From NCBI GenBank assembly GCA_032622095.1, contig CP136066.1, forward strand, positions 169,580,664-169,644,663: a stretch of DNA of 64,000 nucleotides, read 5' to 3'. A model generated the notes under the pieces. It was not told the origin of the DNA. It saw only the letters and a list, made by a program, of their open reading frames with translations, and did no database searches. The position numbers and the translations under genes are program-made. This DNA is from Siphonodentalium dalli. Taxonomy: Eukaryota; Mollusca; Scaphopoda; Gadilida; Siphonodentaliidae. Shown in pieces: positions 2,919 to 54,746 of the stretch (position 1 is the first letter of the stretch; each line of letters begins with the position of its first letter).

Positions 2919-3171
2919 TATGATGTACAATTTGATATTAAAATTACTCAACTCCTCAGTGTTAGTTGCAGGGGTAGGATGTGTAAAATTAGTTGTACCC
3001 ATGCACTGTGACCAAACATTTAGCAGTGCATACAATTTGACAAGATATTGTGAAACTGTAACAGAGATCCGACTCTTGGCTGAGCCAGGATCACCACGAG
3101 GTCCATTTACTTCATACAAAATATAGCTGCGTCGTTATTCCAGTTACTTTCAGTTTAGCTACCCGTTCACC
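2919..3171. repeat. Flank sharing a block with the 1994-2918 loop
   Basis: Bases 2940-2985 repeat the block at about 2398-2440 (both contain CAGTGTTAGTTGCAG after an AAATTACTCA start). No gene is seen. Confidence 0.45.
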
Positions 3172-3366
3172 ATGATTGTCTCGGAGCCAACGATTTCAGG
3201 AAAACCATATTTCGCCATGAATTTACAGCAGAAGAATGCTAGTATAATAAATCCACCAGCCCAAGGAATCTTTTGGGTATACAACATATGGCAAAAGTTG
3301 TATGACATTATTAGAGCTACTTTGGCACATAATGTTGAGTTTATTCAAGGAATTCCAATGGATTAA
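3172..3366 (+). pseudogene. Relic of virus-like packaging ATPase
   Basis: The 64 codons align without gaps to residues about 101-164 of the ATPase at 30710-31612, from the strand before Walker A to the G-I-P motif; about half the residues are identical by eye. The P-loop is damaged: the first glycine is replaced by Glu and the final Thr by Pro (EPTISGKP against GPTSSGKT). The aromatic W-x-Y-x-x-W segment and the following LYD are kept. The frame then stops, and Walker B and everything after it are missing. It is an old, non-functional fragment of the same family, too diverged to be a recent copy of the 30-kb genes. Confidence 0.75.
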
Positions 3367-17275: not shown

Positions 17276-17559
17276 TATATAATAGCAAAGATTTTGTGAC
17301 TCTCACATATAGCTATCCGTTGTAGTTAACGACAAATCCATCATAGTCACAATCGTTCCACTGAAGATGAACTGACTCCTTCTATAACTATTTATGATTA
17401 GGATAGTTACAAACTCTTTAAAATTATTCCCACTTGACTTTGAGACAATTTATTAATATCTAGATACAGGTTCACGTATATCCCAAATACTGTCAGTCGA
17501 CGGTATCCAGAACAATAGATATAGCAAGTTTCACATATATAACTAAAACAGCCAACATG

Positions 17560-18060
17560 TTAAAGGTACGGGAGGCCTTGGCAGTGGGTATCCTGTGAAT
17601 ATATTTTCACCCGTCAAAAACCGCCACAAACAGAAAGAATATTAAAATGTAGATAGACTTTGTTCCTATACAAATAATAAATATCACGTAAACAGTATGT
17701 TATTGTCACATGTTTGACCATTGTTATGTAAACAAAAGCATAAAAAGTAACTTTCCTGGTGTTTGTTTATATTGTGATGGTAAACATAAAGAGCGTTCTT
17801 TGTTGCTGCATTCCTTATATGGAACTAATAAAGAGCGTTTATATAATTTATGTGTGTTTAGCCAATAGCATAGTGCTGTCGTCTGTAACACAATCAGACT
17901 CTTGCTTATGTAAATATAGTAGGTCTTTGTGATAGCATGCTGTTTACGCGATGGTCATGGTATATATGATCGAAACTTTATACGTTTTAATGTTTTTCTG
18001 TTTGTGACGATTGGAACAAATATGAATATTTTCGACAACTAAGCCCTCCTGTGCCTTTAA
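17560..18060. mobile_element. TTAA miniature element, copy B
   Basis: Same structure as copies A and C. The TTAA-flanked ends, AAGGTACGGGAGGCC on the left and CCCTCCTGTGCCTT on the right, are somewhat diverged. It is 501 bp and non-coding. Confidence 0.8.
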
Positions 18061-20900: not shown

Positions 20901-21641
20901 AATGCGTTGTTCTCCCCCAATGCGCCATACTGGAGCGAATTGCTTCCCTTAGGCAGCAGATCTAATTTGACCAATTTAAAGGTCATTTTGTTTATGCGCG
21001 AAACACATGCAATCTGTTCCAACCAGGTCACCAACAACTGTGTCGCTTAGTCTCCTGGGATTGCTTCCAGTCGAGGTGGAACCTCGTACACATGCCGGTG
21101 GGCCACCAGTTCAAACGAAAATAAATGGCGAAGCTGCTTTGAATCCCAATTAACTCATGTTTGACACCCACGCTCGCGACCGGGGGTAATACTTGTCTGT
21201 TGTTTGAGTGCCTGCAAACTCCATGCAGGATTGATTTCCCTTGATGACTATATAAGACCGCTGTTAGCGGTGACATTTTACTCACATCGTGGGGATCTCT
21301 GCGATATTAATATATATACTAATCGAACATAACCACATGTTTCACTCCATCAAGGACACAAAATATCGAACATAGTTTGTTTTTGTAAATTCTTACATAA
21401 AGTTTGGTCAGTCCCACCAGAACCAACGAACTATATCGCGGATGGGTGTGGTTTGGTTCTCCGATTATTTTATCAACACTATTATCGAAATGTACATGGG
21501 CAGCAATGTACATGGCAAACACCAGTAAAGTCAAGCGCAAGCATTCCAATTTGCTGTCATTTTGATGAGTATCATGCTAAAATTGTCAAAAAGGCTGCCG
21601 CTCTAAATCTCCGTTCTGTCAATATTTTTGTTAATGAGGAA
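20901..21641. other. No gene seen
   Basis: Some of the first 100 bases may belong to the LINE fragment on the minus strand. The rest is unrecognised. Confidence 0.45.
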
Positions 21642-21989
21642 ATTGTTCTCAAGCACAGTAGGAAATTTGACTTTGTGTGATCGGTTTCGCCATTTTGGCT
21701 GGAAAATGCACGCTAAATATAGAAAACCACATACTAGTAACCAGAGTCAGAAAGGAAGTATGACAGGTGCGCTCTGGTAAAGATTGGAGTGCCTGTGGTG
21801 AACTGGAGTGATTTTGCCCAGTGCAATGCCAATCTCTATTAGAGCGCACCAGTCATACTTCCTTTCTGACTCTGTCACCGGCTGGGTACCAGTCTGTGGT
21901 GTTCTATATTTAGCGCGGGTTTTTCCAGACAAGATATCGAAACCGCGATCGACCAAAGTAAAATTTCCTATGTGCTTTGAGAACAATTC
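21642..21989. mobile_element. Fold-back element, about 348 bp
   Basis: The arms from ATTGTTCTCAAGCAC (left) and GTGCTTTGAGAACAAT (right) pair along nearly the whole element. Further paired blocks are CAGAAAGGAAGTATGAC with its complement, and GCTAAATATAGAA with TTCTATATTTAGC. The centre is near 21811. Arms of about 150 bp with several mismatches indicate an old insertion. No coding capacity. Confidence 0.7.
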
Positions 21990-23446
21990 CCCCACTAAAT
22001 GTTATTGGAAAATTATAGAGCGGTAGTTTTTCTGACGCTCCTTAGCAAAATGGCAGCAAATTAGAACTCTTGTGTGTGACTTGGCATGACTGCTATCGTC
22101 CATGCATGTGCGTTTAAACTTTTATGTTATGTTGATAAAATAATCCGTGAACCAAGTCACACCGCTTCGCAATATAGTTCTTTTTGTTCTAGCTGGACTT
22201 TCTAAACTTAAGGTATACGAAATTACACACATTTTGTTAAATATTATGTGTGCTTAATAAGGGCAACAATCTGATCTGTTCGCTTAGTATATATCTTAAT
22301 ATTGCGGAAGTTCACCAAATGTAAAATGTCGCCAACCACAGTGATCTTATACCGAGTCATTAAGGAAGGTAAACCCTGCATGCATGGAGTTTGTGAACCC
22401 TCGCCGATAAAACTGACAACAATTTAATTTGGCGATAAACCACAAGAAACCTAACAAATGCAGTCAAGTGACACACAACTTAATGATCAGAACATACAAT
22501 AAACTGTGTTTGTCATGTTCGAAGTGTGAACACTGTTGTTTGCGTCGTTGTGTACCTAGTCGCGTACTTCATATCGTAAATCGGTGCACAATATTCCGAT
22601 ATATTATAAACATTATCGCATGCATTGTTAGGATAGACAAGGGTACACAGCACACACTACGGATACCATTGGTTTTGTTTGGGCAATAGTTTAGCTAATA
22701 CAATATAATTTCGCACATCGATAGTCAAATCCGGAATCATTGTTCGGATGTGTTTTTAGTTTAGTCTGGACTGAATTATAGTCTACAAATGAGTAGTGAC
22801 ACTGTTTTTATCAGGACTGTTATTAACGAACAACAAGGCTCAACGAAAAAAACATTTTAGAAATCCATTCTCATTTTGTACGACACAGACGTTGCGATAT
22901 TCCCCGACAGCATCCGTCAATTTATGTTAAGGACCAAGGGACCTCACTGGACGTAACCAGAACACAATGTTTACCATGAGAATAGACAACTTGAAAGTAT
23001 TTGCTGCAAAATATGTATTAATTTTTTTGGAGACAAATATATTTTATTTGGATTCACTTACCCTATTACTTTTATTTGCCGAATGGGTAATAATTTTAAG
23101 AAATTAAGGCAAGTACAGCAAAGTTGATAATTATTTGAAAAGCACATATTTACAGTGAATCAGGAAACAAGAATTTTTGCAGGAAAATTTTCAAGGTAAA
23201 TTACTTCTTTTTGTTTTACAGTTGCCATCTGCAATGTTTTTCTGCATCCTTTACAGACGGGTCAACCTGTGTGCAATTATTTGTAAATTTTGTATGAACA
23301 CACATTATTTTCCAGTTTGATACCAACTGTCAACTGAGGTCCCCTGACCCTTAGCAACTAGTAAAAACGATCAGTATTGAGAGCTCTCTTTGTTATATAC
23401 TGCGTATTGTGTGGCACCGTGCATTGACGCGCCTTATCAGATAATA
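21990..23446. other. No gene seen
   Basis: AT-rich sequence, no recognisable gene or repeat. Confidence 0.5.
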
Positions 23447-27799: not shown

Positions 27800-28330
27800 T
27801 TCATGTATAGCATGAATCCTATCAGAGATATCGGTTTTCGTAACATATCTTTTCACTTTCGTAATATTGAAGTTCTATTATACTCCTGGAGCCATGTATG
27901 TCGCGTCGATTTAAATGTTTAAATTCAATATCAAGTATTATATGTGACAGAATGTTCAATGGGGTCTGGATCTGAGGAAAATTGATATGAATCTGATCAG
28001 AGATATCGGTTTTCGTAACATATCTTTTCACTTTCGTAATATTGAAGTTCTTGTATACACCTGGAGCCCCGTATGTCGCGTCGATATACAAATGTGTTTT
28101 ATCGGTCCATCGATTTAAATTTTTAAATTCAATATCAAGTATTTGTATGTGACAGAATGTTCAATGGTGTCTGGATCTGATGAAAATTGATATGATTCTT
28201 ATCAGAGATATCGCGTTTCGTAAAAGATCTTTTTACTTTCGTAATATTGAAGCTCTGGAGCCATGATTGTCGTGCCGATCTCTAGACGCGTCTTTGATTT
28301 AAGTATATTTAATTTTCAATATGTAGTATA
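27800..28330 (+). repeat. Tandem repeat, about 2.7 units of 180-205 bp
   Basis: Units begin at about 27809, 27987 and 28190 with TCAGAGATATCGG-type starts, followed by CACTTTCGTAATATTGAAG and AATATCAAGTATT. The third unit is interrupted at its AATATGTAGTATA block by the element at 28331. On the far side of that element, 37023-37060 continues with AGTATACATGACAGAATG, the next block of the same unit. The array is therefore the insertion target. Confidence 0.8.
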
Positions 28331-30085
28331 AGTAGTATCTGTGGCTCGTTAGGTCCACATCTAAAAATAGATTTTATGGGGGTAAAATTGTTTGTACTAA
28401 AATATTCCCAAAATATTTTTTCAAAACCCAAATTTTTTTTTCTCAAAATTTTCAAAAAAAAAAATTTTAATCTCAAAAATTTCTAACGAGTTTTCGGTCT
28501 CTTACCCAAATATCGGGCCGACTATTAAATGTCGAATGTTAAATTATTTGCGTGTAATATCTTTCGTTATTTTTGTTCAAACAAATTTTAAATATTTTTC
28601 ATGAAACTCTGTTAATTTTATTAATCGATGTATAGAAATAGCTTTATACCAATTATATGTGTATGGACAGGTCCGAGTCACGGTAATTTTGGACATTGTG
28701 ACCATCGGTATGAATGCATACATTCCAGTGTTTATCAATCAGACACAACCCATACATCATATAATTGTCATACCTGAAATAATTTGACACCATTACTCTT
28801 ACATGAATAATAAAGAGCGTTTATTCTTTACTTCTCTATCACGATGAAGTTATTGAGTATATGACAGGTGTGCATTATCGCGAATTATTGGAAGTATTGA
28901 GATGTTGTACTATTTTGAAAGCAGTCACGATATTTGAGCGTGTCCAAAAAAATTCAAAAACTTCCAAAAATTTCAAAAATTTCAAAAACTTCAAAAACTT
29001 TCAAAAATTTCAAAAATTTCAAAAACTTCAAAAATTTCAAAAACTTCAAAAACTTTCAAAAATTTCAAAAACTTCCAAAATTAAAAAAACTTCCAAAATT
29101 TCCAAAAACTTCAAAAATTTCAATATATAATGAAGATGACGAGCAACCAATTTTCGACTGGCCTGAGACATTACGTTATGGAATGAATAACGACAGCGGA
29201 TCAGAATGTGATCATACACGCAATAATAGAAGTTACTTTGATGTTGTTATGAATATAATTTTATCAACCTTACGTATTAACAGTTTATTGAGTTATGCAT
29301 ACATATAGTACGTCACTTGGACATTTTATCAGTTTATCACGTGATCACTAAATGTGGCAATCGGGTATCCACCGATGCCTGCAATGTATTATTTATTATA
29401 ATTGGACTCATTGATCTCACGTAAATAATACTCTTAGTTGTTCCAATAAAATAGTTATCAAATTCGATCACCAATAGATTTGACTGTGGAATATAATGAC
29501 CTTTAACTTATTTATCGATCTATGTTAGAACATGGTTTTAACAAAAAACTTGACCATAACAAAAATTACCTTACATTTATGCATGAATCTAATTAGACCA
29601 TGCGTAAATATTGTCAGCTTATCGTCTGATGAGCAAATCCGATGTTTATCAAAAATAGTACAACTTCCAGTTGGTAATAACTCTTACGAATGAAGAGCGT
29701 TGAACATATACGAAATTACTACACGAATGAACTGAAATTTATATTTCACATCTTACCAACAACAGATACAGACATAGTCATAGTGTTATACTGTATTACA
29801 TGTACCCATGCTATGACATCATTAGAAGGGGCAATACACTCAATGAGTTAAAGTGACACGAAACAAGGGACGTGATGTAATATTGGTGTTTGAATCTTAA
29901 AGGAACACAAGACACTCTAAAGGGACACTCATTATGAATGAATGTTAACAATACAAGCGCACGAATGAAGAGCGTTGAACATATACGAAATTACTACACG
30001 AATGAATTGAACCTTGAAATTTATAATTCACATCTTACCAACAACAGCTACAGACATAATCATAGTGTTATACTGTCTTGCATGA
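28331..30085 (+). repeat. Left terminal inverted repeat
   Basis: It is matched by the reverse complement of 34165-37022. In order from the outside it has the terminal block, an AT-rich block with T and A runs (28425-28470), a unique-looking block, a minisatellite of TTCAAAAAC/TTCAAAAAT units (28950-29130), and a block around GTTATCAAATTCGATCACC. Innermost are two sub-repeats starting CGAATGAAGAGCGTTGAAC (29689 and 29961). Left and right arms differ by few substitutions by eye, suggesting a fairly recent insertion or ongoing homogenisation. Confidence 0.85.
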
Positions 30086-30099
30086 CATCATTTTACATG

Positions 30100-30491
30100 A
30101 CATCAAACGAGTCTGGGCACGCATATCTGTCAAAAGATACAATAGCCGTCATTGGTCAATCTATCCTCGGTATCACTTTTCGATTTACAAAATCAATTTC
30201 ACCGAGAGGTTCCCTCGTCATTTGTAGTGACGTAATTGCGGCGTTTTGCGGTATTTTACTGCGGCGGCGCCGGCAACAACGGCGGCAACAACGTTGTTGG
30301 CGGCGGCGGCGGCGGCGGCGCCGCCGCCGCAGTAAAATACCGCAAAACGCCACAATTACGTCACTACAAATGACGAGGGAACCTCTCGGTGAAATTGATT
30401 TTGTAAATCGAAAAGTGATACCGAGGATAGATTGACCAATGACGGCTATTGTATCTTTTGACAGATATGCGTGCCCAGACTCGTTTGATGT
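30100..30491. repeat. 392-bp palindrome with GC-rich apex
   Basis: Positions n and 60591-n are complementary from 30100/30491 inward with almost no mismatch and no indel (one visible mismatch near 30230/30361). The arms contain GTCTGGGCACGCATATCTGT and GCGTTTTGCGGTATTTTACT. The central 70 bases are GCC/GGC repeats with a CAACAACGTTGTTG dyad placed off-centre, so the apex is asymmetric. Such a sequence would fold into a hairpin with a 170-bp stem and small internal arms. It separates the left TIR from the ATPase gene. Hairpin ends are known from parvoviruses and some other linear replicons; that role here is inference. Confidence 0.9.
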
Positions 30492-30649
30492 TCGCTATCG
30501 CATTACTATGTTTTATTAGCCGAGACTTCACTTCTCGTCTGACTCTCTTACCGACAAGACCTGTTGATTCCCCGTCTACACAGTGCTTCTCCGGCAGACT
30601 ATTTCATCTACATAAAGTTATCAAACATACGGACAGGACATATTTTTAG
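30467..30649 (+). CDS. Small upstream ORF, uncertain
   Basis: An ATG frame of 60 codons between the palindrome and the ATPase gene, with a short hydrophobic stretch near its N-terminus (MFAIALLCFIS). In the duplicated copy (from 31811) the same frame is stopped by TGA after 14 codons. It is not clearly coding and may just be leader sequence. Confidence 0.2.
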   Translation: MRAQTRLMFAIALLCFISRDFTSRLTLLPTRPVDSPSTQCFSGRLFHLHKVIKHTDRTYF

Positions 30650-30666
30650 GTTATAATGAACATTTG

Positions 30667-30672
30667 TATAAA
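30667..30672 (+). promoter_or_regulatory. TATA box candidate for ATPase gene
   Basis: TATAAA followed by GG, 38 bases before the ATG at 30710, in AT-rich leader. The duplicate gene has the same sequence at 32011-32016 with identical spacing. The short distance would leave almost no 5' UTR, so this is a candidate only. A second TATAAAT overlaps the ATG itself. Confidence 0.35.
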
Positions 30673-30709
30673 GGAAATCCATATACCGAGACATTTTAGT
30701 CAAGTATAA

Positions 30710-31612
30710 ATGAAGCACCAGTGTTCAATTTGCTCTAGTGAGTATGTGCGGAACCATGATTTGATAAGACATGTACAATCTAAGCACACTGAGTTTGTTA
30801 ACCGACACCCACAACAGCAGCACCAAGCAGCAGCAACAAACAGTAGCAGCAACAGGCAGCAGCATCATCAGCCACAACAACAGCCATTACAGCAACACCA
30901 GATACTACAACACCAGCAGGGGAAACAGCAACAAAGCGACATAACATCCTGCTTTGATGATCCAATGGCCAATGTCCAAGAAGATTTTATTTTCAAGCAT
31001 CCATTCATGGCATGTGTAAGTGGACCGACATCTAGTGGTAAGACATACTTCGTGAAAACCTTGCTACAAAAGTCTGCCTCAAAAATATCACCCGCACCTG
31101 ACAGAATAATATGGTTTTATAAATATTGGCAGCCCCTATATGACGAAATAAAGTATACCGTCACCCCTCAGGTCAACTTTATACGAGGAATACCAGCAAA
31201 CTTGGATTCTCTTATCAACCCCCGGTATAAAAATCTAGTTATACTCGATGACTTGATGCAAACTTCATCAAAAGACCAGAGAGTTAATGATTTGCATTCC
31301 GAAGGAAGTCACCATTTGAACTTATCTTTGATAAGTTTGAACCAGAATTTCTACTACAACAAAGATCCAACGCAACGACGAAATTGTCAATATTTGGTAT
31401 TGTTCAATAACCCAATCGACAAGGGATTAATTTCAACATTATCAAGACAGATGTATCCTGAATGTCCTCAGCGTATGGTTCGAGAGTTTTCGGAAGCGAC
31501 GAGTGAACCGTACGGTTACCTACTGGTGGATTTAAAAGCCGCAACACCGGACACATTACGTCTGCGACAGAATGTACTAAAAGAGGACACGAACCAACAT
31601 ATGGGTGAATGA
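30710..31612 (+). CDS. C2H2 finger-packaging ATPase fusion, intact copy
   Basis: 300 residues. Residues 5-26 are a C2H2 zinc finger (C5, C8, H21, H26). Residues 33-77 are a Gln/His-rich linker. Residues about 92-285 are a P-loop ATPase: Walker A GPTSSGKT at 105-112, Walker B NLVILDD ending in D180-D181, a downstream polar motif with Q212, and an arginine-rich R-R-N-C segment at 223-226. The paired acidic Walker B and the S-x-x-x-x-Q-N stretch match the A32 branch of FtsK/HerA ATPases, which pump DNA into virus capsids. Relatives occur as uncharacterised proteins in many invertebrate genomes, from memory. It has no introns and starts at the first ATG after a TATA box. It is the only complete virus-type gene in the element. 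A DNA-binding role for the finger is inference. Confidence 0.85.
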   Translation: MKHQCSICSSEYVRNHDLIRHVQSKHTEFVNRHPQQQHQAAATNSSSNRQQHHQPQQQPLQQHQILQHQQGKQQQSDITSCFDDPMANVQEDFIFKHPFMACVSGPTSSGKTYFVKTLLQKSASKISPAPDRIIWFYKYWQPLYDEIKYTVTPQVNFIRGIPANLDSLINPRYKNLVILDDLMQTSSKDQRVNDLHSEGSHHLNLSLISLNQNFYYNKDPTQRRNCQYLVLFNNPIDKGLISTLSRQMYPECPQRMVREFSEATSEPYGYLLVDLKAATPDTLRLRQNVLKEDTNQHMGE

Positions 31613-31617
31613 AATGG

Positions 31618-31835
31618 CACCGCCGCCGCCGCCGCCAACAACGTTGTTGCCGCCGTTGTTGCCGGCGCCGCCGCAGTAAAATACCGCAAAACGCCGCAAT
31701 TACCCCACTACAAATGACGAGGGAACCTCTCGGTGAAATTGATTTTGTAAATCGAAAAGTGATACCGAGGATAGATTGACCAATGACGGCTATTGTATCT
31801 TTTGACAGATATGCGTGCCCAGACTAGTTTTATGT
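31618..31835. repeat. Half palindrome with apex in opposite orientation
   Basis: This is the right arm of the 30100-30491 palindrome preceding the second ATPase copy. Its apical 55 bases (31618-31675) equal the reverse complement of the apical bases 30258-30315 of the first copy. Relative to the same arm, the asymmetric CAACAACGTTGTTG region is therefore inverted. The left arm is missing. Two orientations of one apex relative to one arm is the flip/flop pattern known from hairpin-transfer replication; an inversion during duplication could also give it. Confidence 0.75.
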
Positions 31836-32053
31836 TCGCTATCGCATTACTATGATTTAATAGCCGAGACTTCACTTCTCGTCTGACTCTCTTACCGACA
31901 AGACCTGTTGATTCCCCGTCTACACGGTGCTTCTCCGGCAGACTATTTCATCTACATAAAGTTATCAAACATACGGACAGGACATATTTTTAGGTTATAA
32001 TGAACATTTGTATAAAGGAAATCCATATACCGAGACATTTTAGTCAAGTATAA

Positions 32054-32956
32054 ATGAAGCACCAGTGTTCAATTTGCTCTAGTGAGTATGTGCGGAACCA
32101 TGATTTGATAAGACATGTACAATCTAAGCACACTGAGTTTGTTAACCGACACCCCCAACAGCAGCACCAAGCAGCAGCAACAAACAGTAGCAGCAACAGG
32201 CAGCAGCATCATCAGCCACAACAACAGCCATTACAGCAACACCAGATACTACAACACTAGCAGGGGAAACAGCAACAAAGCGACATAACATCCTGCTTTG
32301 ATGATCCAATGGCCAATGTCCAAGAAGATTTTATTTTCAAGCATCCATTCATGGCATGTGTAAGTGGACCGACATCTAGTGGTAAGACATACTTCGTGAA
32401 AACCTTGCTACAAAAGTCTGCCTCAAAAATATCACCCGCACCTGACAGAATAATATGGTTTTATAAATATTGGCAGCCCCTATATGACGAAATAAAGTAT
32501 ACCGTCACCCCTCAGGTCAACTTTATACGAGGAATACCAGCAAACTTGGATTCTCTTATCAACCCCCGGTATAAAAATCTAGTTATACTCGATGACTTGA
32601 TGCAAACTTCATCAAAAGACCAGAGAGTTAATGATTTGCATTCCGAAGGAAGTCACCATTTGAACTTATCTTTGATAAGTTTGAACCAGAATTTCTACTA
32701 CAACAAAGATCCAACGCAACGACGAAATTGTCAATATTTGGTATTGTTCAATAACCCAATCGACAAGGGATTAATTTCAACATTATCAAGACAGATGTAT
32801 CCTGAATGTCCTCAGCGTATGGTTCGAGAGTTTTCGGAAGCGACGAGTGAACCGTACGGTTACCTACTGGTGGATTTAAAAGCCGCAACACCGGACACAT
32901 TACGTCTGCGACAGAATGTACTAAAAGAGGACACGAACCAACATATGGGTGAATGA
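32054..32956 (+). pseudogene. Second ATPase copy split by amber codon
   Basis: The gene is the same length as 30710-31612 and nearly identical. A C-to-T change makes the codon at 32258-32260 TAG in the Gln-rich linker, after residue 68. The zinc finger is thus cut off as a 68-residue frame. The ATPase domain stays open from Met at 32309 for 215 codons, with Walker A, Walker B and downstream motifs intact, so an ATPase-only protein from an internal start is conceivable. The gene lies directly upstream of the C2HC-finger gene, with its stop 6 bases before the next ATG. Downstream gene order suggests that this was the original position and 30710 the new copy. Confidence 0.8.
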
Positions 32957-32962
32957 AATGGC

Positions 32963-33755
32963 ATGAAATATAATCTCCAAAAAGACAGAGAACACCCAGA
33001 TGAACAGAATGGGATGAAAAAACATACAAAAGACACTGAGACCCAGGGTCAGCAGAATGCGATGAAATACGATGACAGAGAACTCCCTGGTCAACAGAAG
33101 GGCATAACATATAATTATATTGTGCCCCAGGGTCAACATAATGACTATACTAACGACATAAGGCCAGCTGGTGAGCTCGATGAAATTAATAAGAAGAACC
33201 GTCAAAACATAGGCATTCGAGAAGACATGTCGTACCCTTGTAATGACTGCGGGCTTTTGTTCGAAGATCATTATGATGTTCAGAGACACGTAAAAAAACT
33301 GGTGTCAAGAAAATAAGTTAAAACGAAAATTAACTGAGGACACGGATGATAGTCAGAATAAGAAAATTAAATTGAATGAAGATGAATACTTCAAAAGTTT
33401 GTGTGCTGAGAGTAGAGATAAAACACATGAGGAATGGAGTGATAAAGTGGACACGTATAAGGAAAATGGTTCGAAAGAAACAGAAGCAAAAGAACAAGCT
33501 GACAAGGACCTTAAAAGTAAAGATATGATGCACTTTATGAATGGTTATGCTTGGACAATAGTATCGTATCTGCAGCTGCGCAATGGGACTCTGCACAACA
33601 GAGTCATGGATAAAGTCGACAAATATTTGAATAATGGTTATGGAGAATATGATGCAGTGAAAATGTCAATATTAAAGTACAAACCGATGCTAGAAAAATT
33701 CATGGACGAAATAAATGACACTTCTGACGAAAGTGATGACAATTCGGACGATTAA
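32963..33755 (+). pseudogene. C2HC-finger gene, frameshifted
   Basis: The first frame (32963-33316, 117 codons) is hydrophilic and Gln/Asp/Lys-rich, then has the start of a zinc finger (C93, C96, H109). It ends after a run of seven A (33292-33298). A second frame, open from 33294 to 33755, begins with a Cys codon (TGT at 33303-33305) spaced to complete a C2HC finger. It continues with a basic stretch, a long charged, probably helical region and an acidic tail ending DDNSDD. It has no good ATG of its own before the conserved-looking part. The simplest reading is one gene broken by a one-base change at the A-run. Programmed frameshifting or a sequencing error cannot be excluded. I recall similar finger-plus-helical proteins beside such ATPases in invertebrate genomes; their function is unknown. 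Confidence 0.65.
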
Positions 33756-33760
33756 ATTTC

Positions 33761-33766
33761 AATAAA
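33761..33766 (+). terminator. Polyadenylation signal candidate
   Basis: AATAAA six bases after the stop of the downstream frame, with a T-rich stretch about 20-40 bases later. It is the only well-placed signal after the gene pair, which suggests a compact viral-type transcript ending here. Confidence 0.45.
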
Positions 33767-33779
33767 CTTCATTAACATG

Positions 33780-34164
33780 ATATTCTCGTTTTCGTTATAT
33801 ATCTATAAGCGGGGAGAGAGTGAGTGGATTATTGGGAATTGTAGAGTGAGAAACGATACGTAATGATAAAAGGCGCATTAAGTGCCCGAAAATTTGAACT
33901 TTAAATATTGTTCTGTGTCATTTTAACTTTCAACCACTGCGCTTGTATTGTTAACATTCATTCATAATGAGTGTATTGTGTTCCTTTAATATTCAAACAC
34001 CGGTGCGTTTATTGTTAACATTCATTCATAATGAGTGTCTTGTGTTCCTTTAATGATGTCATAGCGTGTGCACATGCAAGACAGTATAACACTATGCCTA
34101 TGTCTGTATCTGTTGTCACACCGTGAGTGGATTGTCCGCCTTTAATGATGTCATAGCGTGTGTG
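33780..34164. repeat. Inner spacer with repeated TIR modules
   Basis: Contains extra partial copies of the innermost TIR module (TGTTAACATTCATTCATAAT at 33950, 34013 and again at 34300). The right TIR boundary is therefore fuzzy. No gene. Confidence 0.65.
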
Positions 34165-37022
34165 CATGCAAGACAGTATAACACTATGATTATGTCTGTA
34201 GCTGTTGTTGGTAAGATGTGAAATATAAATTTCAAGGTTCAATTCATTCGTGTAGTAATTTCGTATACGTTCAACGCTCTTCATTCGTGCGCTTGTATTG
34301 TTAACATTCATTCATAATGAGTGTCCCTTTAGAGTGTCTTGTGTTCCTTTAAGATTCAAACACCAATATTACATCACGTCCCTTGTTTCGTGTCACTTTA
34401 ACTCCTTGAGTGTATTGCCCCTTCTAATGATGTCATAGCATGGGTACATGTAATACAGTATAACACTATGACTATGTCTGTATCTGTTGTTGGTAAGATG
34501 TGAAATATAAATTTCAGTTCATTCGTGTAGTAATTTCGTATATGTTCAACGCTCTTCATTCGTAAGAGTTATTACCAACTGGAAGTTGTACTATTTTTGA
34601 TAAACATCGGATTTGCTCATCAGACGATAAGCTGACAATATTTACGCATGGTCTAATTATATTCATGCATAAATGTAAGGTAATTTTTGTTATGGTCAAG
34701 TTTTTTGTTAAGACCATGTTCTAACATAGATCGATAAATAAGTTAAAGGTCATTATATTCCACAGTCAAATCTATTGGTGATCGAATTTGATAACTATTT
34801 TATTGGAACAACTAAGAGTATTATTTACGTGAGATCAATGAGTCCAATTATTATAAATAATACATTGCAGGCATCGGTGGATACCCGATTGCCACATTTA
34901 GTGATCACGTGATAAACTGATAAAATGTCCAAGTGACGTACTATATGTATGCATAACTCAATAAACTGTTAATACGTAAGGTTGATAAAATTCTATTCAT
35001 AACAACATCAAAGTAACTTCTATTATTGCGTGTATGATCACATTCTGATCCGCTGTCGTTATTCATTCCATAACGTAATGTCTCAGGCCAGTCTAAAATT
35101 GGTTGCTCGTCATCTTCATTATATATTGAAATTTTTGAAGTTTTTGGAAATTTTGGAAGTTTTTTTAATTTTGGAAGTTTTTGAAGTTTTTGAAATTTTT
35201 GAAATTTTTGAAAGTTTTTGAAGTTTTTGAAATTTTTGAAGTTTTTGAAATTTTTGAAATTTTTGAAAGTTTTTGAAGTTTTTGAAATTTTTGAAATTTT
35301 TGAAGTTTTTGAAGTTTTTGAAATTTTTGAAATTTTTGAAAGTTTTGAAAGTTTTGAAAGTTTTGGAAGTTTTTGAAATTTTTTGGACACGCTCAAATAT
35401 CGTGACTGCTTTCAAAATAGTACAACATCTCAATACTTCCAATAATTCGCGATAATATATATATCTTTAATCCTCCGATAACGAAGAGTGGATAAACATA
35501 CATATTAGTTTTTTTTTACAAAGAACTCAAGAACAAAAAACAATAGGACAGAAAGACAAGTTTGATCAACAACAAAGACTACCCTCATGTTAATAACATA
35601 TTTACATAGACCTAAGTGCACACATTCGGGCCATCATGCACGTATTACATACTTACATATTTGCAACATGTATGCATCCATTCATGCACGTAGCAACATT
35701 AACCCCTTACATACTGACGAACACACGCAACGGAACGCACAAGTACACCTGTCGTACATATATACTTACATGTGCATCAATCCATACATCCATACATACA
35801 AGCCTATTACATACCTACTTTCCTGGGTCCTGATATACAGCCACACAGACTCACGTACGTATACATGTATACGTGCATACGCACAGTCACCCATACCCAC
35901 ATATACTCGTTACACATATACATACATATGCACATACTCAAGTACACGGTGACACAACAGTACCCTCGCACATTCATTCAACAACAAAAAATCAATAAGT
36001 CAATATAGAGGCCATATATGGACCAATAGCTTGCAGCGAGTATATGAATTATAGGATGTAAGAGAATTATTATTCTGATCCGCTGTCGTTATTCATTCCA
36101 TAACGTAATGTCTCAGGCCAGTCTAAAATTGGTTGCTCGTCATCTTCATTATATATTGAAATTTTTGAAGTTTTTGGAAATTTTGGAAGTTTTTTTAATT
36201 TTGGAAGTTTTTGAAGTTTTTGAAATTTTTGAATTTTTTGAAAGTTTTTGAAGTTTTTGAAATTTTTGAAGTTTTTGAAATTTTTGAAATTTTTGAAAGT
36301 TTTTGAAGTTTTTGAAATTTTTGAAATTTTTGAAGTTTTTGAAGTTTTTGAAATTTTTGAAATTTTTGAAAGTTTTGAAAGTTTTGAAAGTTTTGGAAGT
36401 TTTTGAAATTTTTTGGACACGCTCAAATATCGTGACTGCTTTCAAAATAGTACAACATCTCAATACTTCCAATAATTCGCGATAATGCACACCTGTCATA
36501 TACTCAATAACTTCATCGTGATAGAGAAGTAAAGAATAAACGCTCTTTATTATTCATGTAAGAGTAATGGTGTCAAATTATTTCAGGTATGACAATTATA
36601 TGATGTATGGGTTGTGTCTGATTGATAAACACTGGAATGTATGCATTCATACCGATGGTCACAATGTCCAAAATTACCGTGACTCGGACCTGTCCATACA
36701 CATATAATTGGTATAAAGCTATTTCTAAACATCGATTAATAAAATTAACAGAGTTTCATGAAAAATATTTAAAATTTGTTTGAACAAAAATAACGAAAGA
36801 TATTACACGCAAATAATTTAACATTTAATAGTCGGCCCGATATTTGGGTAAGAGACCGAAAACTCGTTAGAAATTTTTGAGATTAAAAATTTTTTTGTTG
36901 AAAATTTTGAGAAAAAAAAATTGGGGTTTTGAAAAAATATTTTGGGAATATTTTAGTACAAACAATTTTACCCCCATAAAATCTATTTTTAGATGTGGAC
37001 CTAACGAGCCACAGATACTACT
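34165..37022 (-). repeat. Right terminal inverted repeat, expanded
   Basis: Reverse complement of the left TIR, with one large difference: a segment of about 412 bp containing the GAA-type minisatellite is present twice (35045-35456 and 36075-36487), separated by about 615 bp not found on the left. Otherwise the order of blocks is the same and identity is high. The outer end is intact. Confidence 0.85.
35457..36070. other. Insert inside right TIR
   Basis: About 615 bp absent from the left TIR, flanked on both sides by the duplicated TIR segment. It is rich in short CATA/TACA-type motifs (ACATACATA-like, 35640-35960), with long but low-complexity frames. No TIRs of its own, target duplication or recognisable gene was found. 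A gene-conversion, recombination or assembly origin is as likely as transposition. Confidence 0.6.
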
Positions 37023-37364
37023 AGTATACATGACAGAATGTGCAATGGACATAGATGGGGGCGGTCAGTGGATAGTAGCAGGTACAAATGCGTTCGTATA
37101 ACAGCTCGTTTCGCTAATTTAATGTCCAAGCTCACCTATAACTGTCGCGCACCTTTTGGGACCCGTATACATAACATGTCAATAAATAACGGTCAATAAA
37201 CTTTGATACACAGGTATGTTTTGTTTGCAATATTCAAACATTTGCGTCGTGCACCGTATAAATAGTACACGTGGACACGGCAGCATTGTTCAAACTGCTT
37301 GCCTTGAATAGAATATCCGGGATCTTCATCACGTTGAATCAACCTGTTCTCCCGTAAATAAGCT
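37023..37364. other. Target repeat remnant, then no gene
   Basis: The first 40 bases continue the tandem repeat of 27800-28330 across the insertion (see that entry). The rest is unrecognised. Confidence 0.55.
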
Positions 37365-37660: not shown

Positions 37661-38464
37661 ATGTGTTGGTTGATTAGAATACTCCGGATCTTTAAACCGT
37701 TGATTATAATACCCAGGATGTTCACACCGTTGATTATAATACCCAGGATGTTCACACCGTTTATTATAATACCCAGGATTTTCACACCGTTTATTAAAAT
37801 ACCCAGTATTTTAACACCGTTGATTAGAATACCCAGGATTTTCACACGGTTGATTAGAATACCCAGGATTTTCACACTGTTGATTATAATACCCAGGATT
37901 TTCACACCGTTGATTATAATACCCAGGATTATCACACGGTTGATTATAATACCCAGGATTTTCACACCGTTGATTAAAATACCCAGGATTTTCACACCGT
38001 TGATTATAATACCCAGGATTTTCACACTGTTGATTATAATACCCAGGATTTTCACACTGTTGATTATAATACCCAGGATTTTCACACGGTTGATTAGAAT
38101 ACCCAGGATTTTCACACCGTTGATTATAATACTCAGGATTTTCACACCGTTGATTATAATACTCAGGATTTTCACACCATTGATTAAAATACCCAGGATG
38201 TTCACACCATTGATTAGAATACCCTTGATTTTCACACCGTTGATTAGAATACCCATGATTTTCACACCATTGATTAGAATATCTAGGATTTTCACACCGT
38301 TGATTAAAATATCTAGGATTTTCACACGGTTGATAAGAATACCCAGGATATTCACACCGTTGGTTAGAATACTTAGGATGTTCACACCGTTGAGTATAGT
38401 AATCAGGATCTTCAAAACTTTGATTCGAAAACATTTCAATATCTGGAAAGCTTGTTGGTTTCAA
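37661..38464 (-). CDS. Decapeptide-repeat exon candidate in 30-bp array
   Basis: About 25 tandem 30-bp units (plus strand CCAGGATTTTCACACC, then GTTGATTATAAT). On the minus strand each unit encodes N-Q-[RPWQ]-C-E-N-P-G-Y-[YFS], one Cys every ten residues and rich in Tyr, Asn, Gly and Pro. The open stretch of 217 codons starts just after TTTTTCTTAATAG at 38465-38480, a strong-looking splice acceptor, with a non-repeat lead-in of about 17 codons. It ends at a TAA (about 37811) where a unit's GAA became TAA; about five further units follow in frame. Differences between units are mostly amino-acid-changing. Tyr/Pro decapeptide repeats are known in secreted adhesive proteins, but that role is only a guess. 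All frames are nearly stop-free, so this may be a non-coding minisatellite. Confidence 0.4.
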
Positions 38465-38811
38465 CTATTAAGAAAAACACAGCACTTAGTGAAAACAGTT
38501 TTCAGAAATTTACCAACTTAAACCATTAATTCAATGACGAGAGCAATATGTGTGTAAGCACCCAAGTGGAAGAAAGTCAAGCAAAATACATTAAATATGA
38601 GCGAATGTGACAATTGTTTCACACAAGACACATAATTTATATTACACATAGCATAAACATACAAGTGGGAGATCTTACTCGTATTTATATTTACGTACTA
38701 TTATTTTTAATTTAAAAGACAGAGTGAAAATATATTACGACTCTTGAGTTTGTACCAAACCACAATGAAAATAAGAGTGTTATAATTCCACATTTAATGA
38801 GTTAAAGATAC
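38465..38811. other. No gene seen
   Basis: AT-rich sequence. On the minus strand this would be the intron upstream of the decapeptide exon candidate; no preceding exon was recognised. Confidence 0.4.
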
Positions 38812-39331
38812 GGGCGGCGTTGGCGGTGGGTATGCTGTTAAACTATTCACCTCTGTCAAAAACCGCCATAAATAGAAATAATAGTAAAATATAGACAGAC
38901 TTTGTTCTTATACCAATCAGAAATATGGCATAAAAAGTATGTTATTGTCCAATGTTTTTCCTTTGTTATGTAAACAAAAGCAAAAAACGTTACAGAACCT
39001 GGCGTTTGTTTAGATCCGGATATGGTAACCATAAAGAGCGTTATTTGTTACTGTTTTCCTGATATGGAAATCATAAAGAGTGTTTATATCATGTGTGTGT
39101 GATTAACCAACAGAATTACGCTGTGTTATATAAGCAGAAGCAAAATTTATGTAACACGAGCGGGCTCTTGTTTACGTACACCATCGTACGTCTTGACGAC
39201 AATATACTATTTACTCGCTGATTAGGTTTGGCATATGAACAAAACTATATATATTTTTTAGTATTCCTTCTGTTGATGGCGATTTAAAGAAATATGAATA
39301 TTTCTGCAACGAACGCCGCCCGTGCCTTTAA
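38812..39331. mobile_element. TTAA miniature element, copy C
   Basis: Bounded by TTAA at 38812-38815 and 39328-39331. Ends AAGATACGGGCGGCGTTGG and CGAACGCCGCCCGTGCCTT pair over about 14 bases. It is 520 bp, very close to copy A in sequence, and the best preserved of the three. Confidence 0.85.
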
Positions 39332-47141: not shown

Positions 47142-47830
47142 AATTCACGCTACTGCCCAGCGGCGATAACCACGCCTGCCATAAATTGCCAGACTGAATT
47201 ATAGCAGGTTAGACATCACACGCCGATATGTCTGACAACAAGGAACGACGTGTTTCAAATTTGGTGTACTTAACACCAGATTTCGCTGGATTGTTCTTTA
47301 ATTCGACTGGCACTTCATTGAAATCGCGACAGCAAGGATACAAGTACTTTAGTGAAGGCTACATACATTTAGTTTCAATGTTTATTTGCGACGACAAGCT
47401 CTTTATTGGGGCAAATTACCACCGATGTATGATGAAAAATGAACCTGCACATGGCGTCGATTTTGAGATAAATTGTTCGATAATTTCGGATATTCACTGT
47501 TCTTGTCCAGCTGGATATGTAACACATAATAAATATTCAATGTTATTATAATATATTTCTTCACAATAGACGCACGATCGATTAATTTATCGATGGTGTA
47601 CCATACAATTTCCCTATTTCGATAAAAATTCGAGGACTTGTATGTTTTCATTCGTTGTAGTCAGTTTTTTGTACTTTTTCGAAGATGCGCCATACTGGTA
47701 TCAAAAAGTGTTCCATGTCATAATTGATTGTTTTTTTCTGGATAACTGATTGTTTTTTTCTGGATAATGATACATATTCTAATAGATGGGCAATATTGGA
47801 TCCTATACTGGACTTATGAACGTGAACAGC
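47142..47830 (+). repeat. Inverted repeat, partner of 60165-60810
   Basis: The whole segment matches the reverse complement of 60165-60810 at well over 90% by eye, from ATTCACGCTACTGCCCAGCG to ACTTATG-AACGTGAAC. It includes the SWIM-finger frame. The copies lie 13 kb apart and face opposite ways. No TIRs or target duplications were found at the edges. Confidence 0.85.
47228..47551 (+). pseudogene. SWIM-finger fragment
   Basis: 107 codons from an ATG. The region around residues 45-97 looks like the start of a SWIM zinc-binding domain: G-Y-I-H before a beta-rich stretch, then HCSCPAGY with the C-x-C pair. The expected following C-x-H pair is missing because the frame diverges and stops. SWIM domains of this type often sit beside YqaJ-like exonuclease domains in mobile-element genes of invertebrates, from memory. 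It is a fragment or a single exon whose remaining part was not found. Confidence 0.5.
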
Positions 47831-48467
47831 TAATTGCGGTAGGGTCAATTACGCTATTCCATTAACATATATGTAGTTTGGTCAGGGAAGTGTTCTATTG
47901 TAACCAAGCGAAATTCCATGACGATTTCGCTATGAATGTTATTATACACCCGTAAGTGCAAACAACGCGATGCCTCGATCGAGCATAAATGCACATTTGT
48001 GTGTGTATATGTATGTATGTCTGTAGATATATGTGTATATATACATACAATCGAGCGCATACGGCAATAATATACATGTGTACATATAATTGTATTTACT
48101 ATATGTTGTACATAATATCCTCATTCATTGGATGAATAAACAATTAAACAACAGCTAAATAAAGGCTCCAGAATTGAGCCTGTTTCAGCTGTAGTAAGTA
48201 ACAAGGCATGAAATTGTTTATCATTTTTCTGGACTTAATGACGAAAAGAGTTGTAGGCTTTAGTGTCGGGCATTATCACATTTGCGTTATTCCCGAAAGA
48301 GGCACAGGGCAGGTTTTAAATAATGTAAGTTTAAAAGTAATGAAACCGCAATTTAACATCATGCATGTTATGCATAAACGGAAAAAATTCAAGTTACTTT
48401 CCATTACTTGAGAACAAATAATGTTACCATTACACCCTGTAATTTGGACTTCTTTGGTTTCAATTCG
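47831..48467. other. No gene seen
   Basis: Contains a TGTGTATATGTATG-like simple stretch (48001-48050). No gene. Confidence 0.5.
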
Positions 48468-50118
48468 GATGGGACAATTCTATATACGACTACTATATAA
48501 CTACTGACATTTGTCACGTGAATATTTGGTGTATTCATCAACCTATATTTTGGCATGCAGAGCATGACAAAGGCGTCAAATCACTATGTTTAATTTAAGT
48601 ATAGGTGCCGATTTAAATGTTCGATACGAGAAATTGATTAACAACATACGAGTATTAATTTTGAAACTTTTGACCGGGGTTGTACATAGAAGAAGGGAAT
48701 GTGTCCCATTCATTTCGTTCATTTATTCCGAGGCATATTTATCAGTACATAACTATATAGTGTGTTTAGTTTGGTCTCCAAAACGCGACAAAAGCGTGGA
48801 ATCACTATAAATTTAATTTGAGACTTTAAAATAATGCAGATTTAAATGTTCTATAAAACAAATCGATTTGCGGCATACGGCTATTAATTATGATCGTTAG
48901 ATATTTAATGAAATGATTACGTCGTCCTGGGTTGTACAGCTTCACCTGGATGCACATCGATTTTGTACTGATGGGAACAATAAATGATTGTTGCAGATCT
49001 AACCCTGTCAGAAGCTACCGGCATATCGACAACTAACGTACACATCCACTAAATGGGATAGAGTACGCCGTTGGATTTCAATCAGTTTCCATGATTATTT
49101 TGTGTGATGTTATGAGATTACTCACCCGGATTTTCTAATGATGAATGGTATTCAGTCAGTCGTGTTGTTTGTATGTGTTTCGTGTTATATGGTGGAATGT
49201 ATCAAGAAACAATTCAAAATCGGTAAGTCCATATTCCTTGTGTTCAATCAATCATTTTTGCAAAAAACATGCAGACAACAATGCGCGCATCATGCAAACA
49301 GAACATAATACATGGGGTATACAATATAGATATAAATAAATAGTTATACCAGCTGGTTATACGGTACATTATTCCATTACGCGTAACATATTTTCTATGT
49401 CAGGACATCTTATATGTAGTTATAATTGCCCACGTCAGCCCCTAAATGAGAGTTGAACAGTCTGTGTTGGCTTATCCATGTGATACATACATGTAGGAGA
49501 CATGACGTCAATGGAATACGAGGAATTGTGGCATCCATTTATGTAATGATTGTATTTAAACTCTCTAAATTCATTATTTTAGAATGAAAAACATATTTTA
49601 GTGATTCTTATATTATTAACTGGTATCAACTTACATAACTTATTTAAATTGGGGACACGCCAATAATATTCAGCTATGAATTTCTTGCGGAGTGGGATTA
49701 ACGTCTCGCATGTTATAACTACGTTATATTCGTCACCAACGTCTTTATGACTAAGAATACTGGTTTCCATTAATTACTATTTCCATCTTCCGTTTTCGAT
49801 GGTACTCTATGGTTTGATGTTCTTATCATTACAATGTATTCGGCTAGATGGAAAGAAATTTCCCAACATATCCTCGCGGAAATATGCACATAATCGACCT
49901 ATAATGTGAAATAGGTACATGGTGTGATTATATGGTTCTAAAATAAGCAGATAATGGACTCTTACCCGTTATTTCGTGTTATGGCGCGGGCCACAGTGAA
50001 AACACTTGTTAAAGAGTTTACGCATGAAAAGTCACGAGCTGGCGTATTTGTGTCATTGTCGGCACATAATCTGCTTAGAACCGCCTCATCGGGAGTCGAT
50101 AAATTAACTAAAATGTTG
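48468..50118 (+). repeat. Tandem duplication, unit 1
   Basis: 1,651-bp unit starting GATGGGACAATTCTATATAC and repeated at 50119-51783 with a few percent differences. It has no recognisable gene; the 74-76-codon frames in both copies (48586, 50237) are unrecognised. The last 240 bases are an inverted copy of the AT-rich dispersed family, so the duplication boundary falls in or beside that repeat. Confidence 0.9.
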
Positions 50119-51783
50119 GATGGGACAATTCTATATACGACTACTATATAACTACTGACATTTGTCACGTGAATATTTGGTGTATTCATCAACCTATATT
50201 TTGGCATGCAGAGCATGACAAAGGCGTCAAATCACTATGTTTAATTTAAGTATAGGTGCCGATTTAAATGTTCGATACGAGAAATTGATTAACAACATAC
50301 GAGTATTAATTTTGAAACTTTTGACCGGGGTTGTACATAGAAGAAGGGAATGTGTCCCATTCATTTCGTTCAGTGATTCAGAGGCATATTTATCAGTACA
50401 TACATGTAACTATATAGTGCGTTTAGTTTGGTTTCCAAAACGCGACAAAACCGTGGAATCACTATAAATTTAATTTGAGACTTTAAAATAATGTAGATTT
50501 AAATGTTCTATAAAACAAATCGATTTGCGGCATACGGCTATTAATTATGATCGTTAGATATTTAATGAAATGATTACGTCGTCCTGGGTTGTACAGCTTC
50601 ACCTGGTTGCACATCGATTTTGTACTGACGGGAACAATAAATGATTGTTGCAGATCTAACCCTGTCAGAATGACCGCAAGCAACAGGCATATCGATAACT
50701 AACGTACACATCCACTAAATGGGATAGAGTACGCCGTTGGATTTCAATCAGTTTCCATGATTATTTTGTGTGATGTTATGAGATTACTCACCCGGATTTT
50801 CTAATGATGAATGGTATTCAGTCAGTCGTGTTGTTTGTATGTGTTTCGTGTTATATGGTGGAATGTATCAAGAAACAATTCAAAATCGGTAAGTCCATAT
50901 TCCTTGTGTTCAATCAATCATTTTTGCAAAAAAACATGCAGACAACAATGCGCGCATCATGCAAACAGAACATAATACATGGGGTATACAATATAGATAT
51001 AAATAAATAGTTATACCAGCTGGTTATACGGTACATTATTCCATTACGCGTAACATATTTTCTATGTCAGGACATCTTATATGTAGTTATAATTGCCCAC
51101 GTCAGCCCCTAAATGAGAGTTGAACAGTCTGTGTTGGCTTATCCATGTGATACATACATGTAGGAGACATGACATCAATGGGATACGAGGAATTGTGGCA
51201 TCCATTTATGTAATGATTGTATTTAAACTCTCTAAATTCATTATTTTAGAATGAAGAAAATATTTTAGTGATTCTTATATTATTAACTGGTATCAACTTA
51301 CATAACTTATTTCTATTGGGGACACGCCAATAATATTCAGCTATGAATTTCTTGCGGAGTGGGATTAACGTCTCGCATGTTATAACTACGTTATATTCGT
51401 CACCAACGTCTTTATGACTAAGAATACTGGTTTCCATTAATTACTATTTCCATCTTCCGTTTTCGATGGTACTCTATGGTTTGATGTTCTTATCATTACA
51501 ATGTATTCGGCTAGATGGAAAGAAATTTCCCAACATATCCTCGCGGAAATATGCACATAAATCGACCTATAATGTGAAATAGGTACATGGTGTGATTATA
51601 TGGTTCTAAAATAAGCAGATAATGGACTCTTACCCGTTATTTCGTGTTATGGCGCGGGCCACAGTGAAAACACTTGTTAAAGAGTTTACGCATGAAAAGT
51701 CACGAGCGCGTATTTGTGTCATTGTCGGCACACAATCTGCTTAGAACCGCCTCATCGGGAGTCGATAAATTGACTAAAATGTT
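50119..51783 (+). repeat. Tandem duplication, unit 2
   Basis: Second copy of the unit above. It differs by scattered substitutions and short indels (for example a 4-base insertion near 50404 and a gained GACCGCAA near 50671). It ends at TGACTAAAATGTT. Confidence 0.9.
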
Positions 51784-53385: not shown

Positions 53386-53640
53386 GTCAATCGCTCATAA
53401 CGGCTCCTTCATTACAATATGTATACCAATTTAATGTTAATTGTCTGGACGAGTATCTGCCATCAAGATTAATCATTCATATGGTTCAAGAATGTAACTT
53501 CATCACAAAAACAAACATGGTACCGAGTGGGGTACTGATTTTGAATACTTGTTTGTGAAATATGATTTTGGATTATCCCTCTTTTATCGAATTCACAAAA
53601 CCACAATATCCATATTCAACTATTATAGTAAATATGTGAC
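53386..53640 (-). repeat. Dispersed repeat, inverted partner of 336-575
   Basis: Reverse-complement match to 336-575. It merges on its right with the palindromic element at 53636, whose flanks share ACTATTATAGT with it. Confidence 0.75.
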
Positions 53641-54088
53641 CCGCCATATCAAATTCAGTCGTAAGTCGGGATTTTTTTTAACGTGTGCCAATGGATTCTC
53701 TTATATATGCGAGTCGACCATAGGTCGCCTCGCATATATAAGAGAATGCATTGGCCTAACAATATTTTATCATTTTTTTAAAATAAATGTTTCTTACAAT
53801 TTTTAGGACATAAAAAAACATCCATTACCCTGCAGGGATCCCCACACATATATAGAAGTATATAGAAAAGTGTCATCTGCTCATTTTCGTCTGGGGCTCT
53901 GTATGGGCGAAATTATAAAATTGTTAAAGAATACAAGAAAAAATTATTAAAATTGTAAAAAATTGTTAGGCCAATGCATTCTCTTATATATGCGAGGCGA
54001 AATATGGTCGACTCGCATATATAAGAGAATGCATTCGCACAGGGTAAAAAAATCCCGACTTACGACTGGATTTGATGTGGCGGGTCAC
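53636..54088. mobile_element. Nested palindromic element, GTGACCC ends
   Basis: Outer inverted ends of about 43 bases run GTGACCCGCCATATCAAATT, then CAGTCGTAAGTCGGG; just inside each is a complete 67-bp palindrome (53688-53754 and 53971-54037). Between them is the usual TTGTTAAAGAAT filler plus about 110 bp of unrelated sequence with GGATCC. Flanking ACTATTATAGT blocks are themselves inverted, so the true outer edge may lie further out. Confidence 0.75.
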
Positions 54089-54746
54089 ATTTCACTATAA
54101 TAGTTGAGGAATGTGCCTGACCTGTTTCCAGAAGAACAGCAGCCTAAGTAATGAATTATCTTCTCCGGTAATATTACCCAGATCTCGGTCATGGGAATCC
54201 ATTCTCGTATCTCAAAATAGTCAAACGTATACCTGTATTTAATGTATTGTATTTCCCAGTATGTTCTCCCGAAAATCAGCACTTATGGGCTTATAATAGG
54301 ATTTGGTTTAGGTTCATAATCGGCGTAGAATTGCTTCATTTTGAGTCATTAACGAACTGGAATGAGAGTGTTTTAGTGGCATTATACCGACACATAATGA
54401 CTTATGTATAACAACACGAATAAACCAGCTCATGACTTAGCGGATGTTCGCGCCCAGAATCAAATAATCCAATATAAACATTCAAGAACATATATTTTTT
54501 GAAAAATTAAAAAATAGCTGCGCTGGTGTTTAAAAAAGGACATGGATAGCTATCTTCAGTATAGTCGATTTTCAACAGATAATACAACCCAGTATTGAAA
54601 TATTTCGCAATATTTATGTTTTCGAATGTTTGATACACATAATGGCTTTTCCTGGATATGTTCATATTATCCAAACACCGCGAAAATGACAACTTTAGAA
54701 ACAATAACGGTACCTTCTATTACATAGTTTGTCGGAATAATCTGAG

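What the first reader, a model, noticed from the sequence alone, without database searches (positions are those of the whole stretch)
28331..37022. Small Polinton-like element carrying only an ATPase and a finger protein
The element has perfect ends, a 6-bp target duplication and long TIRs as in Polintons/Mavericks, yet its 4-kb core holds no polymerase, integrase, protease or capsid gene. It could be a new non-autonomous class that keeps a packaging ATPase, possibly to use a helper's capsid, or a minimal virus type. Ends and duplication are seen; Polinton hallmarks are established; the satellite idea is inference.
Basis: partly seen in the sequence, partly recalled or inferred. Interest (0 to 1): 0.88.

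Follow-up and report, generated by a model that had tools for sequence, protein, structure and literature searches.

The report
Damaged, shrunken Polinton-type transposon
This is a small, partly broken relative of the virus-like Polinton (Maverick) transposons that keeps their typical ends and one DNA-packaging gene, most likely a defective copy that had to borrow enzymes from a complete element, so it is fairly ordinary.

Summary
In detail: 28331-37022 is an 8,692-bp element with terminal inverted repeats (TIRs), a 6-bp target duplication (AGTATA) and ends AGTAGT//ACTACT, the commonest end type reported for vertebrate Mavericks/Polintons (PMC8097293). The core encodes one recognisable gene, present twice in tandem: a zinc finger joined to a packaging ATPase of the double-jelly-roll-virus type. 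ATPase and finger are one protein: longer relatives, the named ones from bivalves, run finger-ATPase-finger-helical tail, and some Mytilus proteins continue into an adenovirus-type protease. Here the gene is damaged: both copies stop before the second finger, one has an earlier nonsense codon, and the tail is out of frame. No polymerase, integrase or protease was detected; capsid genes were poorly testable. Best reading: a defective, internally deleted Polinton derivative. Whether it moved as a short element or shrank after insertion is open: the host genome could not be searched. A satellite keeping the ATPase for a helper's capsid is unsupported, not excluded.

The parts
28325..28330 (.). 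left copy of the 6-bp target site duplication AGTATA
37023..37028 (.). right copy of the target site duplication AGTATA
28331..30084 (+). left terminal inverted repeat, 1,754 bp, starts AGTAGT; holds a 9-bp minisatellite (28947-29123)
34165..37022 (-). right terminal inverted repeat, 2,858 bp, ends ACTACT; substitutions against the left arm without the minisatellite 4 of 563 (outer part) and 8 of 960 (inner part), with it 25 of 785 and 14 of 1,137
35042..36486 (.). rearrangement inside the right TIR: 415-bp direct repeat (35042-35456 and 36072-36486, 414 of 415 identical) around 615 bp of other sequence
30100..30491 (.). near-perfect palindrome next to the inner edge of the left TIR (arms 30100-30272 and 30319-30491, 171 of 173 identical), lying upstream of ATPase copy 1
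30280..32963 (+). tandem duplication, 30280-31619 and 31630-32963 (98.1% identical), holding the two copies of the ATPase gene
30710..31612 (+). ATPase gene, copy 1: 300-aa ORF, N-terminal C2H2 finger + packaging ATPase; ends before the second finger and tail present in longer relatives
32054..32956 (+). ATPase gene, copy 2: 901 of 903 nt identical to copy 1, with a nonsense codon (difference at 32258)
32957..33755 (+). remnant of the rest of the gene: second C2H2 finger (end of ORF 32957-33313; below Pfam cutoffs) and C-terminal domain (ORF 33294-33755) in another frame
3004..3365 (+). outside the element: decayed fragment of the same finger-ATPase gene family (51% identical to the element's ATPase over 70 residues; internal stop)

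Best explanation
A defective, internally deleted Polinton/Maverick derivative. Shown: Maverick end motif, 6-bp target duplication, long TIRs, one recognisable gene (finger-ATPase-finger-tail), duplicated and broken, and no detected polymerase, integrase or protease. Inferred mechanism: an autonomous Polinton that recognises these ends supplied in trans a protein-primed PolB, which copies from the TIRs, and a retroviral-type integrase, which made the 6-bp staggered cut; the ATPase is a leftover of the capsid module and is not needed for this. The palindrome and tandem duplication look like template-switch scars of the deletion (inference). Alternatively the element inserted at full length and lost its core afterwards; I cannot separate the two. 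My weights: Polinton-derived 0.95; defective rather than functionally streamlined 0.8; already short when it moved 0.55.
Against: Copy 1 is an open 300-aa frame with 0 of 19 invariant positions changed, so a shortened ATPase could still work. It deviates at 10 of 80 near-invariant positions, rank 3 of the 60 rows of A2 (59 of the 120 listed relatives plus the window), but two relatives equal or exceed that, so it is weak evidence of decay. No second copy or full-length partner was seen. Remnants under 45 aa were not scanned, and Pfam may not cover capsids of this lineage, so those absences are less firm. With the minisatellite counted the arms differ at up to 3.2%.
Confidence: 0.78

Rival explanations
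1. Satellite or 'pirate' element: a short family that keeps a packaging ATPase on purpose, to get its DNA into the capsids of a helper Polinton.
For: Only the ATPase gene is recognisable; its first copy is an open frame with a confident predicted fold and no change at 19 invariant positions; the gene is doubled.
Against: Second finger and tail are cut off in both copies, copy 2 has a nonsense codon, and the tail is out of frame. A helper would bring its own ATPase (inference). No second copy was seen, but the host genome could not be searched.
Confidence: 0.07
2. Variant within the best explanation: a full-length Polinton inserted here and lost its core after insertion (ordinary fossil), so it never moved as a short element.
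For: The same ends and target duplication would result; rearrangements inside the element (right-arm repeat 414 of 415 identical, palindrome, tandem duplication) show it is prone to internal change.
Against: Both TIRs are kept to the last base and what is left of the core is one gene region; a random deletion need not leave that (inference).
Confidence: 0.35
3. Not a Polinton but another DNA transposon (for instance Ginger2, which also prefers 6-bp AT-rich targets) that captured an ATPase gene.
For: No Polinton integrase or polymerase is present to prove the link; Ginger2 prefers 6-bp RTATAY targets (PMC2836005 passages).
Against: Ginger ends are TGTNR and the target is RTATAY; here the ends are AGTAGT, the Maverick motif, and the duplication AGTATA does not fit RTATAY. 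The ATPase is of the packaging type that Polintons carry.
Confidence: 0.03

Closest known systems
Polinton/Maverick (polintovirus), (AGT)2//(ACT)2 end type
   Same: end motif, 6-bp target duplication, TIRs, packaging ATPase of the double-jelly-roll-virus type
   Different: 8.7 kb instead of 12.7-24.6 kb for intact vertebrate ones, TIRs 1.75 and 2.86 kb against 46-1,447 bp there; no PolB, integrase or protease detected; ATPase carries C2H2 fingers and is broken. In one survey the elements lacking capsid, protease and ATPase had lost them together (nine elements; PMC4028283 passages); here the ATPase alone remains
Finger-ATPase-finger protein family (unnamed; named members from the bivalves Pecten, Solemya, Mytilus, Mercenaria, Mya, Ruditapes)
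   Same: same domain order piece by piece; 43-67% identity over the aligned part among the 120 listed hits
   Different: longer relatives are one continuous protein of about 410-525 aa; here in pieces
Adintoviruses and the clam adomavirus of Tegillarca
   Same: passages of PMC11071296 mention zinc-finger genes in some adintoviruses and an FtsK/HerA-like packaging ATPase in a Tegillarca clam adomavirus; that adintoviruses in general carry a packaging ATPase and adenovirus-type protease is recalled
   Different: no PolB, integrase or protease found here; no adintovirus or adomavirus sequence was compared directly
Non-autonomous derivatives of DNA transposons (Ds, MITE type)
   Same: intact ends around a core without transposition enzymes (recalled; Ds abstract start in the listing)
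   Different: much larger, very long TIRs, retains a viral morphogenesis gene

Membership tests
Polinton/Maverick | 6-bp target site duplication | tested here: met
   AGTATA on both sides
Polinton/Maverick | terminal motif (AGT)2//(ACT)2 or (AG)3//(CT)3 | tested here: met
   AGTAGT//ACTACT; motif from PMC8097293
Polinton/Maverick | terminal inverted repeats | tested here: met
Polinton/Maverick | packaging ATPase of the double-jelly-roll-virus type | tested here: met
   gene damaged
Polinton/Maverick | protein-primed PolB | tested here: not met
   no Pfam match among 85 ORFs of 45 aa or more in the element
Polinton/Maverick | retroviral-type (rve) integrase | tested here: not met
   no Pfam match among the same 85 ORFs
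Polinton/Maverick | adenovirus-type cysteine protease | tested here: not met
   no Peptidase_C5 match; the protease part of P0057 gave no tblastn match in the window and that of P0042 only two chance-level ones outside the element (E 0.27 and 0.81)
Polinton/Maverick | major and minor capsid proteins | tested here: inconclusive
   no match, but I did not check whether Pfam covers Polinton capsids of this lineage
Polinton/Maverick | length 15-25 kb (12.7-24.6 kb for intact vertebrate ones) | tested here: not met
   8,692 bp; lengths
Non-autonomous Polinton family mobilised in trans | several copies sharing these ends and this core | not tested
   The genome search did not answer in 18 attempts; the element's DNA has no other match in the window
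Adintovirus | PolB and integrase genes (recalled as defining) | tested here: not met
   no Pfam match; capsid genes inconclusive
Ginger2 | TGTNR termini | tested here: not met
   ends are AGTAG; motif from PMC2836005

The most novel reading that the evidence does not exclude
A non-autonomous Polinton lineage that moves as an 8-9 kb unit and keeps only a shortened finger-ATPase, the finger binding its own TIR DNA so that the ATPase directs that DNA into a helper's capsid: a metazoan packaging satellite.
Probability: 0.05. Interest if true: 0.8.

Novelty: new member of a known kind. Interest (0 to 1): 0.3.

Why it matters
It gives a clean, base-precise example of a Polinton-type element that has shrunk while keeping the ends an integrase needs. 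It also points to a family of packaging ATPases, the named members from bivalves, that carry C2H2 fingers on both sides and in some Mytilus proteins are followed by an adenovirus-type protease. If short copies with the same junctions turn out to be common, Polintons can be mobilised in trans, which bears on how these virus-transposons lose their viral half.

Tried and rejected
Two separate genes (ATPase, finger protein): rejected, longer relatives carry both fingers and the ATPase in one protein. Ginger2 or another transposon with 6-bp duplications: rejected on end motif. Chance inverted repeat: rejected.

Led nowhere: the search for related loci with the ATPase and with alignment A1 in viral contigs and with A1 in genome contigs (2, 395 and 50 pattern matches, 0 confirmed); phages by tblastn (none); TIR-end patterns in viral contigs and genome contigs (none); tRNA and Rfam scans of the window (none). 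PDB by sequence gave 4 matches at E 0.16-0.93, two of them zinc-finger chains, none a packaging ATPase. PHROGs gave nothing below E 0.02. A search for proteins like the stretch before the ATPase in P0121 found itself and one other Mytilus protein. The long relative P0012 was modelled (mean pLDDT 74.9; ten-residue blocks from 381 to 490 in its helical tail average 86-98); I did not search its fold.

Literature: ten searches. The phrase search for non-autonomous Polinton or Maverick returned 0 papers. In the other listings I saw no report of such an element, judged from titles, abstract starts and the passages read in nine papers (PMC4028283, PMC6431247, PMC2836005, PMC8097293, PMC12220804, PMC11071308, PMC11071296, PMC10294476, PMC8905726) and two more on non-autonomous elements (PMC2871265, PMC5718144); whole sections were read only in PMC6431247 and PMC8097293. 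This is not proof that none is in print.

Full report
WHAT IS THERE. The element runs from 28331 to 37022 (8,692 bp). The six bases before it and after it are both AGTATA; it begins AGTAGTATCTGTGG and ends with the inverse of that, CCACAGATACTACT. Self-comparison gives a left terminal inverted repeat 28331-30084 and a right one 34165-37022; the right one is longer because a 415-bp stretch occurs twice (414 of 415 identical) around 615 bp of other DNA. Away from a 9-bp minisatellite the two arms differ at 4 of 563 and 8 of 960 aligned positions; with it, at 25 of 785 and 14 of 1,137, gaps apart (minisatellite). Control: of 27 inverted pairs of at least 100 bp in the window, 1 has AGTAGT//ACTACT within 12 bases of its ends, this one, and it has the duplication; several of the 27 are sub-alignments of it.

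THE CORE. Between the arms lie 4,080 bp. They hold a palindrome (30100-30491) and then a tandem duplication (30280-31619 and 31630-32963, 98.1% identical) that carries the same gene twice. Copy 1 is an open frame of 300 residues (30710-31612). Copy 2 differs at 2 of 903 positions, one of them making a nonsense codon (32258). After copy 2 come the remains of the gene's second half: a C2H2 finger in one frame and a tail in another. 85 stop-free ORFs of 45 aa or more, from the whole element, were scanned against Pfam at E 0.05: 19 families matched, none of them a polymerase, integrase or C5 protease; besides ATPase and finger families they are scattered matches such as Med31 (E 0.0002) and Spem1 (E 0.002), which I take for chance or repeats.

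WHY POLINTON. The end motif (AGT)2//(ACT)2 is the commonest in vertebrate Mavericks, whose intact copies also have 6-bp duplications (PMC8097293, sections 6 and 7 and passages). Adenovirus-like protease and packaging ATPase are called the most conserved of the ORFs Polintons accumulate (PMC6431247, section 10). Seven proteins, six named Mytilus and one unnamed, share a stretch that in P0042 follows the ATPase part (query included). Scanned with Pfam, 3 of 7 pass the curated cutoff for the adenovirus protease (P0042, P0057, P0124), 2 of 7 match it below the cutoff (P0035, P0121) and 2 of 7 do not at E 0.05 (P0122, P0123). Gene predictions may fuse neighbours, so this shows adjacency rather than a real fusion.

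HOW IT MOST LIKELY WORKED. Inference: an autonomous Polinton sharing these ends supplied PolB and integrase; the ATPase is then a passenger. Its state fits: cut short in both copies, tail out of frame, one nonsense codon. Against decay: copy 1 is open and unchanged at 19 of 19 invariant positions, although it deviates at 10 of 80 near-invariant ones, rank 3 of 60, with two relatives at or above it (59 of the 120 listed relatives were used). The arms' low divergence suggests that the insertion is young (no clock was applied). What cannot be told is whether the core was lost before the last move or after it.

SURROUNDINGS. A fragment of the same gene family lies at 3004-3365, 51% identical to the element's ATPase over 70 residues, with an internal stop; I take it for an older insertion. 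The element's DNA has no other match in the window at E 1e-5 with the low-complexity filter on. A table passage for the clam Mercenaria lists 7,091 and 6,453 Maverick pieces, 1.69% and 1.93%, in two columns whose headings I did not see (PMC8905726), and 96% of loci in the vertebrate Maverick survey are eroded, so a broken, short copy is expected.

LIMITS. Absence of other Polinton genes rests on Pfam and on ORFs of 45 aa or more; capsid genes are the least certain.

VERDICT. Observation confirmed; Polinton origin very likely; a purposeful ATPase-keeping satellite unsupported. By the membership rule it is not filed as a Polinton proper (polymerase, integrase, protease and size not met) but as a non-autonomous Polinton derivative.

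Noticed in passing
window 3004-3365: Second, decayed copy of the finger-ATPase gene family, without a match to the element at DNA level.
   Followed up: partly
window 48467-51783: Head-to-tail duplication of a 1.65-kb unit (48467-50117 and 50118-51783, 97.7% identical).
   Followed up: no
window 37669-38425: 30-bp minisatellite, about 25 copies, just right of the element; open in several frames but looks non-coding.
   Followed up: no
window 8643-9149, 17559-18060, 38801-39331: Dispersed repeat family with three copies in the window, 71-87% alike.
   Followed up: no
window 21215-22393 and 53616-54107: Palindromic (fold-back) stretches, 70% and 78% identical to their own reverse complement.
   Followed up: no
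window 47142-47827 and 60167-60809: Inverted pair of a 0.65-kb repeat, 90% identical, about 12 kb apart.
   Followed up: no
protein P0121 (Mytilus galloprovincialis): Gene model with about 150 residues before the ATPase part that remind me, from memory only, of a Polinton/adintovirus virion-associated protein; a search found only one other Mytilus protein.
   Followed up: partly
protein P0073 (named Sedimenticola sp. MAG): A finger-ATPase filed under a bacterial bin; probably host DNA misbinned (inference).
   Followed up: no
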